Shown here: in pieces, positions 55,955 through 62,492 of the stretch
Layout of the letters: every line of letters starts with the position of its first letter
Position numbering within the stretch: position 1 is the stretch's first letter
DNA from: Bacteroidota bacterium
Lineage (GTDB): Bacteria > Bacteroidota > Bacteroidia > Flavobacteriales > Weeksellaceae
Direction: 5' to 3'
Length of the DNA: 64,000 nucleotides
Assembly: GCA_018266955.1 (NCBI GenBank)
Contig: JAFDZI010000022.1
Location: 124,001 to 188,000 of the forward strand
Notes under the pieces: model-generated
Seen by the model: the letters and a program-made list of their open reading frames with translations, nothing else
The model's database searches: none
What the model was told of the DNA's origin: nothing
Made by a program: the position numbers and the translations under genes

Positions 55955-56350
55955 GGGGTTGACTGGCTTCGACAGCAAGACCAATGGGTAAGTAAGCATG
56001 CAGAGAACCGTAGCGCGATCTCTTTAATCCCTTGCTACAAAATTTAACTGGCAACGAAGAGTTTGCTCTTGCTGCTTAATCTGAAGTTTAGTAGGATAAG
56101 CCTTTTCCCGAAGTATAGTAAGGAAACAAGATGTCTCACCAAAGTTCTGTTCTGCGACAATGGAATCTGAGGCATAGGAAATGCGGAAATAAGCTTTTGG
56201 AAGCTTCGGCCAAAGGACGAAAACCAAAGAAGATAAGCGTAAAGTTGGCTGTTGACTGTCTGTTTTACGACGAAAATTAAAAGTTGAATAAGCATGTAGA
56301 AAGCTTGCGTATTGCTTGTTTGGACGAGGGTTCGAATCCCTCCAACTCCA
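55955..56350 (+). ncRNA. ssrA: tmRNA (transfer-messenger RNA)
   Basis: The tRNA-like ends are GGGGTTG (55955-55961) and CAACTCC (56343-56349) with discriminator A. The 5' part GACTGGCTTCGACAG and the 3' T-arm GGGTTCGAATCCC are standard. The tag frame starts at GGC (56050) and reads GNEEFALAA followed by TAA (56077-56079), the Bacteroidota-type tag. The last 12 nt coincide with the attL core of an integrated element, so the functional 3' end is kept. An older terminator now lies beyond the element. Confidence 0.96.
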
Positions 56351-56351
56351 C
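56339..56351. other. attL core at ssrA 3' end
   Basis: CCTCCAACTCCAC forms the 3' acceptor side of tmRNA and is repeated exactly at 62444-62456. Confidence 0.9.
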
Positions 56352-56356
56352 ATTAT

Positions 56357-56398
56357 CAAAAGCGTAATTAACTAATATACAGTTACTTGCGCTTTTTT
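56357..56398 (+). terminator. Element-borne terminator downstream of ssrA
   Basis: AAAAGCG ... CGCTTTT with an inner AACT/AGTT pairing and a T run, 6 bp inside the element. It would replace the displaced native ssrA terminator. Confidence 0.65.
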
Positions 56399-56406
56399 TA
56401 TTTTGT

Positions 56407-56431
56407 AAATTGTACAAGATTTGTACAAATA
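56407..56431. repeat. Subterminal repeat, left (possible integrase arm site)
   Basis: Two adjacent palindromic words, TTGTACAA and TTTGTACAAA, in a 25-bp unit that recurs in the same orientation at 62294-62318 with one mismatch. Confidence 0.8.
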
Positions 56432-56956
56432 GAAAAAGGATAGCCAAAAATGACTACCCTCGTGTGTGTTAATCAAACTAAAAATATAGCTCTTTAGTTC
56501 ACTTCAAAGATACGGCTTTTCCATTATTGCACAATACCTCAATAAATATTCTGTGTTTCTCTTATTTATTGATAGTGAAGATTAACATTGTCGGCTTACA
56601 AAACAAAATAGGTATTGTTAGAAATCGAGTTTAGAATTTCGGTTTGTTGCTTTCTATTTTTATAGGGGGTGGGTAAAATATAAGTGCTTAAAAAGTCAGA
56701 TTTTATTTTCTTCCTGTATATATATCTACCCTTGTAATTGTTCAGATATTTGATACAAAAATGTTTACCGCCTTATAATGAATTAGTTATATATACTGAT
56801 TAGATTATTGGTAAAGAAAAAACCACCAATATATGGTGGCTAAATTTATAACTTATTGATTGTCAGATTTGATAAAAATATCATGTCTGATATTCAGGGT
56901 GTTAAAAGACCTACACCCTTGATAATTTATACCTTAATCGCCTGATAATTATTGTT
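56432..56956. other. Non-coding left end of the element
   Basis: About 525 bp with no credible open frame on either strand. On the minus strand it contains a terminator hairpin (CCACCATATATTGGTGG then TTTTTT, 56817-56840) that ends the leftward operon, and a further hairpin GGGTGT/ACACCC (56898-56918). The rest is A+T-rich and unexplained. A packaging or transfer site would be possible but there is no evidence. Confidence 0.6.
56817..56840 (-). terminator. Terminator of the element's replication operon
   Basis: On the minus strand GCCACCATATATTGGTGGTT plus a T run, about 115 bp after the primase-like gene. Confidence 0.85.
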
Positions 56957-58213
56957 TCAATTTTTAAGTATAATATTATCCCAGCTTTCAGGCTCGTATT
57001 GTATAAGATTTTTAATGAATAGGCAAGTGATGAGGTCTTTTATTTCTAAAATGTGGGGTTTATTATCTTTCAGGAATGATGTCATTCTTTCAATTAATGT
57101 AGGTTCTTTTATAACCTCATCTTTACCAATAAGACTTTCTGCCAAATACTTAAAGTCATCATTACTTATATGATTGAGTGCAGTTAGTAGCCTTTCTTCT
57201 TCCGTATAGCTGTCATAAGGCTTCGTTTTCTTTGTGATAAACTCCGTCCTATCCAGCTTTATTAAAAAGTCTGCAATATCCAAACCTTTGTCTTTTTCTT
57301 CCTGCGTGGCTTTTCTTTCTAACAAGTCAAACATTTGAAACTTTGTACCGTGTAATTGTTTTTGATATTCTTTGACTTTGGTTTCCCATTCTTTAAAAGT
57401 ACCACCGCTTTTTGATAAGTCGGGCAACACATATACAAACCGTCCTTGTAGTGCTTTTATCTTATCAAATGAAAGACTACTTTTATTGTACACGGCTAAC
57501 CAAATAATATCTTTTAGCGGTTCAAATTGCTTAAAGAATAGCATACATATAACGGCTGTCTTTGGAGCTTCCACCAGTCCTATTTTAGCATTTGGATATT
57601 GCTTTAATAGATGACTTCCAAAAAGACAATTGATTTTTTTCTCTTGATTTTTATACTTCAACAACCATTCGGGGGTTGGCTTTACCTCTTTCTCAATGAT
57701 AGAATGTAAAAAGGTTGTTGAGGTTGTATGATTGTCTTTATCAAAATCTTTTACTTGTATTGCGTTCACTCTGTTATATTCGTCTATAAAGGGGAATGTA
57801 ACCGCACCAGTAGTTAAGTTTGTGCCTAAATAATACTTCTCTATAACTTCCTCAACCTCATCAAGTGGATAGTATTTGAGTAGGTTATTGACAAATGTAT
57901 TCTTATCATAACCTTGTAGGGTCTTTTTAAAGGCTTCAAAGTCAAAATAAAATATTTCTCTTTGTTGAGGTTTGAAAGGTTTATGAGGTTTAAACCGTCT
58001 TTGATAAGGTGTAAACTCTTTCTTTCCGTATCCTGCTTTGAATGGGTTTAGATGATGGTTACATTCATCTAATCGGTCGCATTTGCCAAACTCATCGGGC
58101 AGTAGCTCTTTACTCTCATTGTCAATGTAGCGAACAAATCTTTTCTTTCTGCATTGCGGACAAATGTATTTTTTTGATGATGGGTCGAGTGTATAACGAT
58201 ATGAATTATTCAT
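56957..58213 (-). CDS. Zinc-finger primase/replication protein (DUF6371 type)
   Basis: The 418-aa product begins with a four-Cys cluster (Cys18, Cys21, Cys45, Cys51), like the zinc ribbons of primases. A basic linker, a degenerate toprim-like region (about 180-260, with KIGLVEAPKTAVICML) and a charged C-terminal part follow. It resembles DUF6371 proteins of Bacteroidota mobile elements; I cannot confirm the family. It follows the iteron array and is the last gene of the leftward operon. A role in replication priming is inferred. Confidence 0.65.
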   Translation of the reverse strand: MNNSYRYTLDPSSKKYICPQCRKKRFVRYIDNESKELLPDEFGKCDRLDECNHHLNPFKAGYGKKEFTPYQRRFKPHKPFKPQQREIFYFDFEAFKKTLQGYDKNTFVNNLLKYYPLDEVEEVIEKYYLGTNLTTGAVTFPFIDEYNRVNAIQVKDFDKDNHTTSTTFLHSIIEKEVKPTPEWLLKYKNQEKKINCLFGSHLLKQYPNAKIGLVEAPKTAVICMLFFKQFEPLKDIIWLAVYNKSSLSFDKIKALQGRFVYVLPDLSKSGGTFKEWETKVKEYQKQLHGTKFQMFDLLERKATQEEKDKGLDIADFLIKLDRTEFITKKTKPYDSYTEEERLLTALNHISNDDFKYLAESLIGKDEVIKEPTLIERMTSFLKDNKPHILEIKDLITCLFIKNLIQYEPESWDNIILKN

Positions 58214-58263
58214 TTTTTATTAATTTGTAAACTACTGAAATTCAATATATTAGAAAAATCAAT

Positions 58264-58469
58264 AAGGTTTAAGAAAATCAACAAGGTTTAAACCTTATTT
58301 TTAGCACTTTTTCATCACATAGTTTAAACCTTGCTAAACCTTATTTATCCCTTTACTCATCGGCTTTTTAGCTGTTAAGGTTTAAAGGTTTAAATCTTGT
58401 TTCTAAACCGTCAAAAGTAACATGGTTTAAAGGTTTAGCCGTATATATAATACGGCAAACCTAAACCTT
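58264..58469. other. Iteron array, candidate replication origin
   Basis: In about 206 bp the word AAGGTTTAA or its complement TTAAACCTT occurs about ten times. It includes a perfect 14-bp palindrome AAGGTTTAAACCTT (58283-58296), overlapping pairs AAGGTTTAAAGGTTTAAA (58377-58394) and GGTTTAAAGGTTTAG (58424-58438), and single copies at 58264, 58323, 58335 and 58462. An inverted repeat GCCGTAT/ATACGGC (58438-58456) adds a hairpin. The array lies between the ATPase and primase-like genes, the usual place for an origin. Confidence 0.72.
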
Positions 58470-59609
58470 GTGAAAGAAATTAGTATTTAGAGTGTATGGT
58501 TTCCGTGGTTGGGATTGTATTATTCTTCCCTCAAATTTTAATTTTAATACCAGCTCTTTAGTATCGTTATCGCCAATGCTTATCTTATATTTCTCTTTGA
58601 GTGCTACTTTAATACCCCTCCATAAATTATCATATCCAATTTCTTTATTTTTTGAGAATAGAGTATTTAGAATATCTGTTATTTTGAGGTCGTCAATAGT
58701 TGGACTACTTCTTTTTTCTCTTGATGATGTTGAGGGTGTGTAATCCGTGATGTAAGGTAGTCCATCGCTATCAATCTCAAACGCTAAACCGTCAAAATCT
58801 TTTTCTCGACTTTCCGTAGCTTCCACAAGTGATATATCTTTATTATCCTTTGCTCTTGATATAGAAACTACTGTTTGAGCCTTGTTTACTAATTCAGTGC
58901 CTAAATGCCCTCTTGCATTGGTGTCGCCTTTATTCTGATGTAGGACTGTCGTAATATGTATATTGTATGTCGCAGACCATTGCAATAAATATGTAGATAA
59001 TAAGGTAGCTTGTTCTTCATCATTGATTGAGTATGTCAAATCTCGAATGCCATCAATAAAAACATATCCTAAATTTTCTGTCTTTTTAATTGCTTCATCT
59101 ATCATTGACAATCGTTCACTTGGTTCATCTTCTCTTAAATAATAGACTTCCAAATTATCGAAATTTTCCCCTGCAATAGCTTCAATTCTTTTTAATGCTT
59201 TTTGCGTGTGATACTCTCCTTGTTCTGTGTCGAAATACAAAACTTTCTTTTTATCGTTGGGTAGATGTCCTGTTATTGCCGTATTGGATTCACTTGATAA
59301 TAACCTACCAGCCATTAAAGACAAGAAGAATGATTTACGGCTCTTTGCTTTGCCTGTAATTAAGCTGAAATTTCCTAACGAACCAAATACCTCTCCGCCT
59401 ATTTTTAAGGCTGTTTTCGGAGGTTGTAATGGTTTGTTTCGGTCTATTTTCCGTTTCTTCAATTTTAATTGTAAATCACTATCTTCCGTTACTTCCTGTA
59501 AAGATTTTTCAAGATTTTCAGCAGTTAAAACTCTAAAATTTGGATTAATTTTTGTATCTTCGCCTTGTTCGTTTAAACCCATAAGGCTTTGATTTACTGT
59601 TGTATTCAT
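58461..59609 (-). CDS. RepA-like AAA ATPase (DnaB/RecA-like fold)
   Basis: The 382-aa product has a Walker A-like loop GKAKSRKS (86-93, with Arg where Gly is usual), DTEQG (127-131) and Walker B YVFIDGIRD (182-190), then TVLHQNKGD and a C-terminal winged-helix-like tail. This is the AAA_25/RepA style found in small Bacteroidota elements, acting as helicase or origin-binding ATPase. Its 3' end overlaps the last iteron. It begins 8 bp after the HTH gene, so the two are co-transcribed. Confidence 0.78.
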   Translation of the reverse strand: MNTTVNQSLMGLNEQGEDTKINPNFRVLTAENLEKSLQEVTEDSDLQLKLKKRKIDRNKPLQPPKTALKIGGEVFGSLGNFSLITGKAKSRKSFFLSLMAGRLLSSESNTAITGHLPNDKKKVLYFDTEQGEYHTQKALKRIEAIAGENFDNLEVYYLREDEPSERLSMIDEAIKKTENLGYVFIDGIRDLTYSINDEEQATLLSTYLLQWSATYNIHITTVLHQNKGDTNARGHLGTELVNKAQTVVSISRAKDNKDISLVEATESREKDFDGLAFEIDSDGLPYITDYTPSTSSREKRSSPTIDDLKITDILNTLFSKNKEIGYDNLWRGIKVALKEKYKISIGDNDTKELVLKLKFEGRIIQSQPRKPYTLNTNFFHKV

Positions 59610-59617
59610 CGCCTTTT

Positions 59618-59902
59618 TTATTTAATGGGTGTGAACAAATTCTCAATGTCAGCTCTTTTGTAGTAGCGTTTACCACCAATGCCATAAGATTGTAGCTTTC
59701 CTGCTTTCTCCCAATGCCAAAGAGTACTGCTACTCGCTAACTTCCCCCTTACTTCGGTCTTAGAAACATAGTCAGATAACAATCCTTTTTGAGGTTCTGC
59801 TATACTGGTTTCCTTTTCAATGATTAAGCGTTTTAATTCGCTTACTTGCTCCGTCAAATCTGCTACCGCTTGTGGTAGTGTTTCGAATGATAATTTTACC
59901 AT
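59618..59902 (-). CDS. Small helix-turn-helix DNA-binding protein (excisionase/AlpA type)
   Basis: The 94-aa product has an N-terminal coiled-coil part (about 8-36) and a C-terminal winged-helix/HTH_17-type domain (about 45-92; LLSDYVSKTEVRGKLASS, then WEKAGKLQSYGIGGKRYYKRADI), as in excisionases and AlpA-type regulators. It opens the replication operon and could set integrase directionality, origin use, or act as repressor. The operator-like array upstream is its natural candidate target. Confidence 0.75.
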   Translation of the reverse strand: MVKLSFETLPQAVADLTEQVSELKRLIIEKETSIAEPQKGLLSDYVSKTEVRGKLASSSTLWHWEKAGKLQSYGIGGKRYYKRADIENLFTPIK

Positions 59903-60052
59903 AATATTTATTTTAGAACATTATGAAATCAATATAAACGCTAATCTCATTTTCCCATTTTTGCTAAATTTCGATTTTGCTTTTTCGTTGGTTAGCTTGT
60001 TCGGGTTGGATAAGTGTAAAATAAAAAACTCCATAACATTATTATTGTGGAG

Positions 60053-60120
60053 CAAAGTTGGTTAGGCGTTTTCGTGGGATTTTTGGGCGTTCGCCTAAAT
60101 TTCGCCCAAAATCGCCCAAT
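60053..60120 (-). promoter_or_regulatory. Operator-like repeat array upstream of the HTH gene
   Basis: TCGCC(C/T)AA occurs three times at 60091, 60102 and 60112 (10-11 bp apart, same helix face) and twice inverted (TTAGGCG at 60062-60068 and TTGGGCG at 60083-60089). A 9-bp inverted repeat TTTTGGGCG (60081-60089)/CGCCCAAAA (60103-60111) is included. On the minus strand CAACTTTG (60053-60060), close to the -7 consensus, directly adjoins it. The pattern suggests repressor sites over a promoter. A TGTCGGAAG tandem duplicate follows at 60161-60178. Confidence 0.6.
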
Positions 60121-60195
60121 ATTGATTTTCAGTTAGTTACATGAAATAAAATTATAACCGTGTCGGAAGTGTCGGAAGTGCTACTTAAACAAAAC

Positions 60196-60996
60196 TTATT
60201 TTTTTTCATCTACAATTTTAGAGATCCTTTCTTTCAATCCTTTTTCAATTTCCAACTGTTTTATTAGGTTATCGATATTATCCAATTGTTTTCTAATAGT
60301 ATTCCCTTTTATAGTATTATTTGAAAAGTGATATAATTCTCTTTCTTTATCTTCTTGTGTTAATTGATTGTATTTTATTTTATTGTTAGTACAATGGATA
60401 TGATATGCCAAAGCATATTCTTTCGCTGTATATTTCTTTTCTTTTTGACAAATAGATAGATTTGTTTTTAATGTACCTCTCTTCTCTCCGTCATATATTT
60501 TAGTTATAAGACTAATTCTATTCTGTCCGTAACTTCTATCTCCTAATTCTCTTTCTCGATTGCCTAAAAAGTTATTTTTCTCTGCCAACTTATCTAATCT
60601 TGGGTGTTCAATATAGCTATTTCCGTATTTATCCCAAAGAAATTCAGAAAGGTTTATGCTTTTATCGAGTGGATAACTATCGGTAAACGGAAATAATTTA
60701 TCTCCGCCCAATTCTTTGTATCTATTTTCTAAATGTTGTACTCCGTATTTTTTAGCAGTTTGCCCCCAATGAACCAGTATTAAGTTTTCGTTTAAAAGTT
60801 CTTGTACCTTACTGGAATACTCTTCCAAAGCTTCTTTTTCTTTATTCTCGTCCGATGGGTCGAATTCATAACTTAAAGTAATTCCTTTTGCAATTATATG
60901 TAAGCTGTAAATTTTATTTGGATTGTTCCATGCATTACATTGGTAGTGAGTGAAAAACACATCTTGATAAGGTGGTAAATTTTTTATTGTTTCCAT
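60196..60996 (-). CDS. Uncharacterised element protein
   Basis: The 266-aa product has no signal peptide or membrane segment. It is acidic and basic in alternation, with an aromatic-rich N-terminal half (HYQCNAWNNPNKIYSLHIIAKG) and a helical C-terminal end with a likely coiled coil (about 235-262). I recognise no domain. Its start codon lies 2 bp after the integrase stop, so the pair is translationally coupled. It could be cargo, an accessory recombination factor or a defence protein; sequence alone does not decide. Confidence 0.7.
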   Translation of the reverse strand: METIKNLPPYQDVFFTHYQCNAWNNPNKIYSLHIIAKGITLSYEFDPSDENKEKEALEEYSSKVQELLNENLILVHWGQTAKKYGVQHLENRYKELGGDKLFPFTDSYPLDKSINLSEFLWDKYGNSYIEHPRLDKLAEKNNFLGNRERELGDRSYGQNRISLITKIYDGEKRGTLKTNLSICQKEKKYTAKEYALAYHIHCTNNKIKYNQLTQEDKERELYHFSNNTIKGNTIRKQLDNIDNLIKQLEIEKGLKERISKIVDEKK

Positions 60997-60998
60997 AT

Positions 60999-62255
60999 TT
61001 ATTTTTTAGCGTTAATGAAGTAATCAAAACTTTCTTTAGCAGTATCTTTTGAAGTCTTGCCAATATAGACCAGTAGCATATTTTCGGTGCTATGTCCTGT
61101 AATATCCTTTAGGTATGTAGTAGGTACTTTGCCGTAGTAATTAGTTGCAAAAGACCTCCTGCCACAATGCGAAGTAATAAGCTCATATTTAGGGTATTCT
61201 CCAGCTATTTCTCTAACTTCGCCTTTACCTACTACTTCTGCTTTTTTACCTCTTGTAGGGGTGTCTATTCCCGCTCTTTTGCAAACCTCTTTTATGTATT
61301 CGTTATATCGTTGGTCGCTTATCTTTCTTGGGAACTCTCCACCTCTTTTTTGTAGAATATCTTCAACTTCGGGAAGTATGGGTACTGATATAATTTTAGA
61401 GGTTTTTTGTTGCCTTAAATCCATATATCTTTTTCCGTCAGTAATCCTTATCATTGATGAGGTAAATTTTAGAAAGTCGCTAACCCTCTGCCCGGTGTAA
61501 CAAGATATTAGTAACCAATCTTTGGCATTATCTAAGTAGTCGTCATTAAAGGTAGTAGCTTTTATTTTATCGAGTTCCTCAAAGGATAGATATATCTTTG
61601 GGAAGACCTCATCTTTTAACCTTACTTGAAGTTTCTCTAATGATAAACTTGTAGGCATTCCGTTTATTCGTGCGTGTACACAAACGGTCTTAATGAAAGT
61701 GAAATTTTTCTTTATCGTTTCAGGTGCGTATTGGTTTTTTAAACCGTAAGCCGTCCAATCTTTTAGAAATTGCTCATTAACATCAACAACCTCATATTTT
61801 TGTTTTTTGAAAGATTGAAATTTAGCTAACAAATTCCTTATTGATACCCACTTTTTCCATGATGATAATTTAGACTTCAACTCGTGTTCTCGTAATCCTA
61901 AGTAATAATCAAAGTAATCCAATAAACCACTTGGGATAACCTCATTCATTTTAGGGTTGTAATAATTGATTAAAGCGTTATTTAGCCAATCTTTATCTAT
62001 CGTCTTGGTTTTATTACTTTCTTCAAGTAGATAATCTTTAACAGATTGTAAATGATTGTCTAAGTCTGTTTTAAGGTTTTGTTTTTCTCCATCTCTAAAC
62101 CGCTTATTATTCTTGTATTCCTGCCAAAAATTTTTAGTAACCTTTATTTGTAATTGTGAACGAATGGACTTGAAAGAATTGTCCTCTTTGTAGGTTAGTC
62201 TAACCTCAATGTTTGAAAAGTCTTTTTTAGACCTAAACTCAAAAGCTATATTCAT
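60999..62255 (-). CDS. int: Site-specific tyrosine recombinase (integrase)
   Basis: The 418-aa product is the element integrase: an arm-binding domain (about 1-90), a core-binding domain (about 100-215), and a catalytic domain with Arg257 (CYTGQRVSD), Lys284, His363-x-x-Arg366 (SHCGRRSF), His388 (GHSTENM) and nucleophile Tyr397 (VYIGK). It belongs to the Bacteroidota phage_int_SAM_5 style. It lies beside attR and reads inward. Its promoter should lie in 62256-62300, close to the right subterminal repeat, which could allow autoregulation. Confidence 0.9.
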   Translation of the reverse strand: MNIAFEFRSKKDFSNIEVRLTYKEDNSFKSIRSQLQIKVTKNFWQEYKNNKRFRDGEKQNLKTDLDNHLQSVKDYLLEESNKTKTIDKDWLNNALINYYNPKMNEVIPSGLLDYFDYYLGLREHELKSKLSSWKKWVSIRNLLAKFQSFKKQKYEVVDVNEQFLKDWTAYGLKNQYAPETIKKNFTFIKTVCVHARINGMPTSLSLEKLQVRLKDEVFPKIYLSFEELDKIKATTFNDDYLDNAKDWLLISCYTGQRVSDFLKFTSSMIRITDGKRYMDLRQQKTSKIISVPILPEVEDILQKRGGEFPRKISDQRYNEYIKEVCKRAGIDTPTRGKKAEVVGKGEVREIAGEYPKYELITSHCGRRSFATNYYGKVPTTYLKDITGHSTENMLLVYIGKTSKDTAKESFDYFINAKK

Positions 62256-62293
62256 GATATTTTAAATTGATTAACACATTTCAAAGATATAAA

Positions 62294-62318
62294 AAATTGT
62301 ACAAAATTTGTACAAATA
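62294..62318. repeat. Subterminal repeat, right (possible integrase arm site)
   Basis: The same 25-bp TTGTACAA/TTTGTACAAA unit as at 56407-56431, same orientation, one mismatch (A for G at 62305). It lies 39 bp upstream of the integrase start. Confidence 0.8.
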
Positions 62319-62443
62319 AACCGAACAAAGCAAAATAATTTAAAATCGTTTAAAAATGAATATTCTTTAAAACACTTTGTTTATAGGGTGTTATACTTGT
62401 TTTTGTATTGTGTTTGATTTTTTAATATTCGCCTTTTGTAGAA

Positions 62444-62456
62444 CCTCCAACTCCAC
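62444..62456. other. attR core
   Basis: Exact copy of the 13-bp tmRNA 3' end CCTCCAACTCCAC. The base before it differs from attL. Confidence 0.88.
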
Positions 62457-62466
62457 TATTTCCATT

Positions 62467-62492
62467 AAAGGCATTCCATTGAATGCCTTTTT
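62467..62492 (+). terminator. Orphan terminator, probably the original ssrA terminator
   Basis: AAAGGCATTC-CATT-GAATGCCTTT with a T run lies 10 bp after attR, with no plus-strand gene before it. Removing the element would put it directly after ssrA. Confidence 0.82.

What the first reader, a model, noticed from the sequence alone, without database searches (positions are those of the whole stretch)
56339..62456. Compact 6.1-kb element integrated in the tmRNA gene, resembling a phage satellite
Seen: exact 13-bp att duplication, integrase, HTH protein, RepA-like ATPase, zinc-finger primase-like protein, iterons, and no relaxase, capsid or conjugation genes. Known: tyrosine integrases often target tmRNA 3' ends, and phage satellites and some integrative plasmids combine integration with their own replication. 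Inferred: an autonomously replicating hitchhiker in Flavobacteriia that needs another element to spread.
Basis: partly seen in the sequence, partly recalled or inferred. Interest (0 to 1): 0.85.

Follow-up and report, generated by a model that had tools for sequence, protein, structure and literature searches.

The report
Minimal hitchhiker element in tmRNA gene
A complete 6.1-kb DNA hitchhiker sits precisely at the end of a bacterium's tmRNA gene; it carries genes to insert and probably copy itself but none to build particles or transfer channels, and it belongs to a little-noticed family across the Bacteroidota in which several relatives carry phage DNA-packaging genes.

Summary
In detail: an intact 6.1-kb integrative element lies between two exact 13-bp copies of the tmRNA 3' end (56339-56351, 62444-62456). 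It carries tyrosine integrase, orf266, HTH_17 protein, AAA_25 ATPase, iteron region and Zn-ribbon/DUF6371 primase. It is not a decayed end. Sister elements in Amniculibacterium aquaticum have 13-bp att sequences at other RNA genes, and 17 bounded relatives (5.6-14.6 kb) sit at tRNA or tmRNA genes across Bacteroidota, one in Gramella's tmRNA with a matching 13-bp repeat. In the primase tree the window falls in a 64-member clade with no detected relaxase; relatives there often carry terminase-small-subunit or DUF5681 genes directly after the primase. A more distant circular relative encodes an HK97 capsid, a terminase small subunit and an orf266 homologue. The core is also homologous to the Tn4555-type mobilizable element, so one chassis has been fitted with either transfer module. 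The window element itself carries neither, and packaging was not tested; its genome has two conjugative elements and no prophage terminase found by two models. Verdict: a minimal, PICMI-like member of a Bacteroidota hitchhiker family, phage satellite most likely but unproven.

The parts
55955..56351 (+). Host tmRNA gene (ssrA), integration target; 3' end kept intact by the element
   Evidence: ARAGORN, Rfam RF00023 3.5e-59
56339..56351 (+). att core copy 1 (last 13 nt of tmRNA)
   Evidence: exact repeat, none in 100 shuffles
56410..56428 (.). arm-type site TTGTACAAGATTTGTACAA, probable integrase binding site
   Evidence: same motif at both ends only, 0 expected; conserved in L015
56436..56461 (-). 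terminator-like hairpin downstream of the operon
   Evidence: terminator-like hits in the region equal chance, so weak
56821..56841 (-). terminator-like hairpin downstream of the primase gene
   Evidence: weak
56352..56956 (.). non-coding end; the part nearest the RNA gene is 82% identical over 379 bp to the tRNA-Ser end of the A. aquaticum element; lacks that element's 102-aa ORF
56957..58213 (-). Zn-ribbon + DUF6371 primase-like protein, 418 aa
   Evidence: Pfam/NCBIfam; a crAss-like phage homologue is annotated DNA primase/helicase
58214..58460 (.). iteron region, probable replication origin; GGTTTA/TAAACC repeats including palindrome AAGGTTTAAACCTT
   Evidence: all 5 exact AAGGTTTAAA of the window are here; conserved in L015
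58461..59609 (-). AAA_25 (RepA-like) ATPase, 382 aa
   Evidence: Pfam AAA_25 2.6e-10
59618..59902 (-). HTH_17 protein, 94 aa, probable excisionase/AlpA-type regulator
   Evidence: HTH_17 1.2e-4, PHROG excisionase 0.018; matches Tn4555-type excisionase 1.6e-4
60196..60996 (-). orf266, variable gene 2 bp downstream of int; N-terminal part modelled as RNase-H/exonuclease-like fold without the catalytic Asp/Glu pair
   Evidence: phrog_8766; model pLDDT 70, VIA Z 10 to T7 polymerase exonuclease domain
60999..62255 (-). tyrosine integrase, 418 aa
   Evidence: Pfam/PHROGs
62297..62315 (.). arm-type site TTGTACAAAATTTGTACAA
62444..62456 (+). att core copy 2
62467..62492 (+). displaced native ssrA terminator (AAAGGCATTC..GAATGCCTTTTT)
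   Evidence: similar hairpin directly follows ssrA in A. aquaticum (L220)

Best explanation
It is a complete, minimal integrative hitchhiker of a Bacteroidota-wide family without relaxases. The integrase recombines a 13-bp core with the 3' end of ssrA and restores the tmRNA sequence (borders shown; reaction inferred). The HTH_17 protein, probably with orf266, turns the integrase towards excision (inferred from position, from Tn4555-type elements and from PICMI). The resulting circle of about 6.1 kb is replicated from the iteron region by the ATPase and primase (inferred). It then leaves the cell most likely inside particles of an infecting helper phage, as PICMI satellites do with a similarly small gene set (inferred from relatives with TerS or capsid genes and from circular relatives in a virus-contig collection; not shown for this element).
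For: 13-bp att, arm sites and displaced ssrA terminator. Sister elements in A. aquaticum: the 13 nt at the tRNA-Ser 3' end recur beside an integrase end, and a second integrase end abuts another 13-nt sequence resembling a tRNA end. Seventeen bounded relatives at tRNA/tmRNA genes, including a Gramella tmRNA with CCTCCGACTCCAC. 64-member primase clade, support 1.0, no relaxase hit with nine relaxase queries. TerS in relatives: L175 phrog_309 1.5e-50, L144 phrog_51 2.4e-28, L180 6.9e-24, L194 1.9e-30; c21 genes weakly TerS-like. Circular L082 with HK97 capsid (2gp1 5.2e-19), TerS and an orf266 homologue. Circular small relatives L045, L050, L060. PICMI plan and size, 6,110 bp (PMC10803314).
Against: The window element has no TerS, capsid or recognised packaging signal. 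Its genome has two ICEs with relaxase and TraG and no resident prophage terminase by two models. The core is homologous to a relaxase-bearing Tn4555-type element. L082, L180 and L194 lie outside the 64-member clade, so the strongest capsid/TerS cases are distant relatives. IMG/VR contigs are not all from purified particles. No excision, replication or packaging data were available.
Confidence: 0.5

Rival explanations
1. A non-canonical integrative and mobilizable element: it excises and replicates by itself and is transferred as single-stranded DNA by a resident ICE that recognises an oriT on it, with no relaxase of its own.
For: Core homologous to the Tn4555-type mobilizable element; two complete-looking ICE transfer regions in the same genome; relaxase-less mobilizable islands are documented (PMC5704250); an 82%-conserved non-coding end next to the RNA gene could hold an oriT.
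Against: No significant similarity between the element and either ICE transfer region, apart from one short AT-rich alignment (5.8e-5) away from the relaxase gene; no relaxase found in the clade while TerS genes recur there.
Confidence: 0.22
2. An integrative plasmid without specialised transfer: it excises, replicates and moves rarely by generalised transduction, transformation or vesicles.
For: The window element carries only integration and replication genes plus orf266.
Against: Wide distribution, insertion at several RNA genes and conserved gene order fit efficient horizontal movement better.
Confidence: 0.18
3. A decayed remnant of a larger mobilizable or conjugative element that lost its transfer genes.
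For: The A. aquaticum sister has one extra 102-aa gene at this end; more distant relatives carry relaxases at that position.
Against: All genes intact, both att ends and arm sites present; relatives of similar size and order keep both borders, and no relaxase was found in the whole clade.
Confidence: 0.08

Closest known systems
PICMI, phage-inducible chromosomal minimalist islands of Vibrionaceae (PMC10803314)
   Same: About 6.1 kb; integrase, a variable gene overlapping or adjoining int, HTH_17/AlpA-type regulator, primase; no capsid-remodelling genes.
   Different: Primase is DUF6371, not DUF3987/DUF5906; target is ssrA, not fis; adds an AAA_25 ATPase; Bacteroidota host; packaging untested.
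Tn4555-type mobilizable element (CP103138.1; named from cfxA and gene set)
   Same: Homologous primase (28%, 1.6e-33), integrase and excisionase in the same functional order, with an ATPase before the primase.
   Different: No mobilization gene and no resistance gene here; the window groups with relaxase-free relatives in the primase tree.
PICI and capsid-forming PICI satellites
   Same: Integrase, small HTH regulator and replication genes; some relatives add TerS or an HK97 capsid.
   Different: The window element has no TerS and no capsid gene.
Riemerella anatipestifer 10-kb genomic island (PMC6764341)
   Same: Integrase-bearing island in the same bacterial group, inserted at an RNA gene; excises as a circle.
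   Different: 53-bp att at Arg-tRNA, 12 ORFs; not compared by sequence here.

Membership tests
PICMI | int, AlpA-type (HTH_17) and primase genes in a roughly 6-kb element | tested here: met
   the HTH_17 match is below the Pfam cut-off
PICMI | DUF3987/DUF5906 primase | tested here: not met
   Pfam shows Zn_ribbon_16 + DUF6371 only
PICMI | integration at fis | tested here: not met
   integrated at ssrA
Phage satellite (general) | DNA packaged in helper-phage particles | not testable with these tools
   needs lysates or viromes
Phage satellite (general) | packaging or capsid-interference gene on the element (not required in PICMI) | tested here: not met
   no match in the five genes; present in relatives only
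Canonical IME (Tn4555/NBU type) | integrase plus excisionase-type HTH | tested here: met
Canonical IME (Tn4555/NBU type) | own relaxase | tested here: not met
   no relaxase in the element or its primase clade
ICE | type IV secretion and coupling-protein genes | tested here: not met
   none between the att sites

The most novel reading that the evidence does not exclude
Bacteroidota harbour a phylum-wide, undescribed class of phage satellites (int - variable gene - HTH - [small protein c5] - AAA ATPase - DUF6371 primase - TerS/DUF5681/other) at tRNA, tmRNA and mnmE genes, sharing its chassis with Tn4555-type mobilizable elements, so that one integrating and replicating core has switched between conjugative and viral transfer; the window element is its most stripped-down form.
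Probability: 0.45. Interest if true: 0.82.

Novelty: new variant of a known kind. Interest (0 to 1): 0.62.

Why it matters
My searches of the open-access paper library found no description of phage satellites in Bacteroidota, although this phylum dominates gut and many marine communities. If relatives with TerS and capsid genes are satellites, a family of small islands now filed as unknown would gain a mode of spread, and the shared core with Tn4555-type elements would show how a hitchhiker can exchange a conjugation module for a viral one. Many of the elements are 6-9 kb, have defined borders and occur in cultured species, so packaging can be tested directly.

Tried and rejected
Shared oriT between element and resident ICEs: no significant match near the relaxase genes. 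Remnants of TerS, DUF5681, c9 or the 102-aa gene in the non-coding end: none. Defence function for orf266 or the variable slot: no PADLOC match for orf266; two of 63 slot proteins match PDC-S05. Close relatives of the window's integrase or ATPase in IMG/VR: none by pattern scan. c9 family in IMG/VR: none by pattern scan, although L050 carries a c9-like gene by profile; its function remains unknown. Resident prophage helper: no Terminase_6N or Terminase_3 match. Structured RNA in the element: only tmRNA matched. The c21 model is low confidence (pLDDT 63), so its TerS reading rests on several weak lines. VIA rows cover only residues 8-174 of orf266. A genome with ssrA directly beside acpP and no element was not found: in A. 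aquaticum acpP lies about 10 kb away, so the empty site is shown by the terminator, not by full flanks.

Full report
CHECK. The 13-mer CCTCCAACTCCAC occurs only at 56339-56351, the last 13 nt of the tmRNA, and at 62444-62456; 100 shuffles of the window gave none. Between the copies lie five intact genes on the minus strand. Their families are tyrosine integrase, an unassigned 266-aa protein, a weak HTH_17 protein, an AAA_25 ATPase and a Zn-ribbon/DUF6371 primase-like protein. Between the primase and ATPase genes is a 247-bp region holding all five exact AAGGTTTAAA sites of the 64-kb window; it is almost unchanged in the sister element. The finding also missed paired TTGTACAA sites just inside both ends, with none expected by chance. 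Beyond the second att copy lies a hairpin terminator resembling the one that directly follows ssrA in Amniculibacterium aquaticum, so the native terminator appears to have been pushed away by 6.1 kb.

SISTERS. Its primase is 90% identical and sits beside tRNA-Ser. The 13 nt at that tRNA's 3' end recur, inverted, beside an integrase end on another contig, and a second integrase end abuts a different 13-nt sequence that reads like a tRNA 3' end. The two integrase ends are 94% identical to each other, and one of them 80% identical to the window's. DNA from primase to HTH gene is 87% identical to the window's, but the gene behind the integrase shows no similarity to orf266. The window's own genome carries a second, more distant element of 5.6 kb at tRNA-Ala with a 15-bp repeat and a DUF5681-like gene.

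FAMILY. Of 99 related genomes, 11 have a primase match. A profile search of named genomes returned many more, of which the best 80 were kept. Annotated together they show a shared order: integrase, variable gene, HTH, often a second small protein (c5), ATPase, primase, then a variable slot. Seventeen relatives have direct repeats at a tRNA or tmRNA 3' end, giving sizes of 5.6 to 14.6 kb; Gramella sp. KN1008 has one in its tmRNA with the 13-bp repeat CCTCCGACTCCAC. Others lie beside mnmE, several with repeats too long for chance. The variable gene adjoins or overlaps int in 68 loci and falls into 26 groups by BLAST linkage.

TRANSFER MODULE. In a primase tree of 160 sequences the window falls in a clade of 64 (support 1.0) containing no relaxase-bearing element by label. 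Nine relaxase proteins used as queries found none there. Sampling favours sequences like the query, so the count is not a census. In 53 integrase-bearing loci with at least 2.5 kb beyond the primase, 26 have DUF5681, c9, c21 or TerS-type genes in that slot and two have relaxases. Some of these genes are clear terminase small subunits: L175 (Spirosoma) phrog_309 1.5e-50, L144 phrog_51 2.4e-28 (there before the core rather than after it), L180 6.9e-24 and L194 1.9e-30. The c21 family is weakly TerS-like by three methods. The circular IMG/VR contig L082 (8,668 bp) joins the same chassis and an orf266 homologue to TerS, an HK97-type capsid protein (PDB 2gp1, 5.2e-19) and a protein that reads like a prohead protease, the last from its sequence and its similarity to ORFs of phage contigs here. 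L045, L050 and L060 are further circular contigs with the chassis. On the other side, the same core occurs with a mobilization protein and cfxA in CP103138.1, which I take to be Tn4555-type, and with relaxases in L019, L020 and L023. I conclude that the chassis is shared and the transfer module varies.

MECHANISM. Shown: precise borders, intact genes, close sisters at different RNA genes as judged from their att sequences, conserved iterons. Inferred: integrase-driven excision under the HTH protein; a role for orf266 in excision, by position and by analogy with PICMI iolg, which is needed for excision (PMC10803314); iteron-dependent replication by ATPase and primase; phage packaging. orf266 has a moderate model (pLDDT 70) whose first 174 residues resemble polymerase exonuclease domains (VIA Z 10.0, rmsd 3.9, 143 aligned), with His and Gln where T7 polymerase has its catalytic Asp and Glu by my reading; a catalytic role is unlikely.

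ALTERNATIVES. The host genome has two ICE transfer regions and no Terminase_6N or Terminase_3 match. A helper phage, if any, would be external or of another terminase type. ICE-driven transfer of a relaxase-less island is documented elsewhere (PMC5704250), but no oriT similarity to the resident ICEs was found. These facts hold my confidence in phage packaging at about one half.

NOVELTY. The library searches gave no description of phage satellites in Bacteroidota; the nearest descriptions are PICMI in Vibrio and the relaxase-bearing Bacteroides elements. Most subscription journals and preprints are not in that library, so earlier description cannot be excluded. I rate the window element a new variant of a known kind and the family reading as the larger prize.

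Noticed in passing
L082:1-8791 (IMGVR_UViG_3300012942_000311): Circular 8.7-kb contig with integrase, orf266-like gene, ATPase, primase, TerS and HK97 capsid but no TerL or portal by our profiles: looks like a capsid-forming satellite.
   Followed up: partly
L014:3447-9071 (G000:C5): Second element of the family in the window's own genome, 5.6 kb at tRNA-Ala, with a DUF5681-like gene.
   Followed up: partly
L241, L242 (G000:C22 and C8): Two ICE transfer regions with relaxase and TraG in the window's genome.
   Followed up: partly
L119, L126, L127, L142, L161, L165, L167 and others: The 3' side of mnmE is a recurrent insertion site for this family, as trmE is for SGI1 elsewhere.
   Followed up: partly
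L198 (MT839118.1): A record filed as 'Bacteriophage sp.' from human faeces is nearly identical at protein level to the Tn4555-type core of CP103138.1: mislabelled, or mobilizable-element DNA in a virus preparation.
   Followed up: no
L221:990-1100 (G001:C155): Just after ssrA in another species of the genus a hairpin is followed by TTGCACAAGAATTGCACAA, much like the window's arm-type site; perhaps the trace of a former insertion.
   Followed up: no
L123:12085-12672 and about 26 relatives (c9): A conserved 195-aa protein of unknown function in the slot after the primase.
   Followed up: partly
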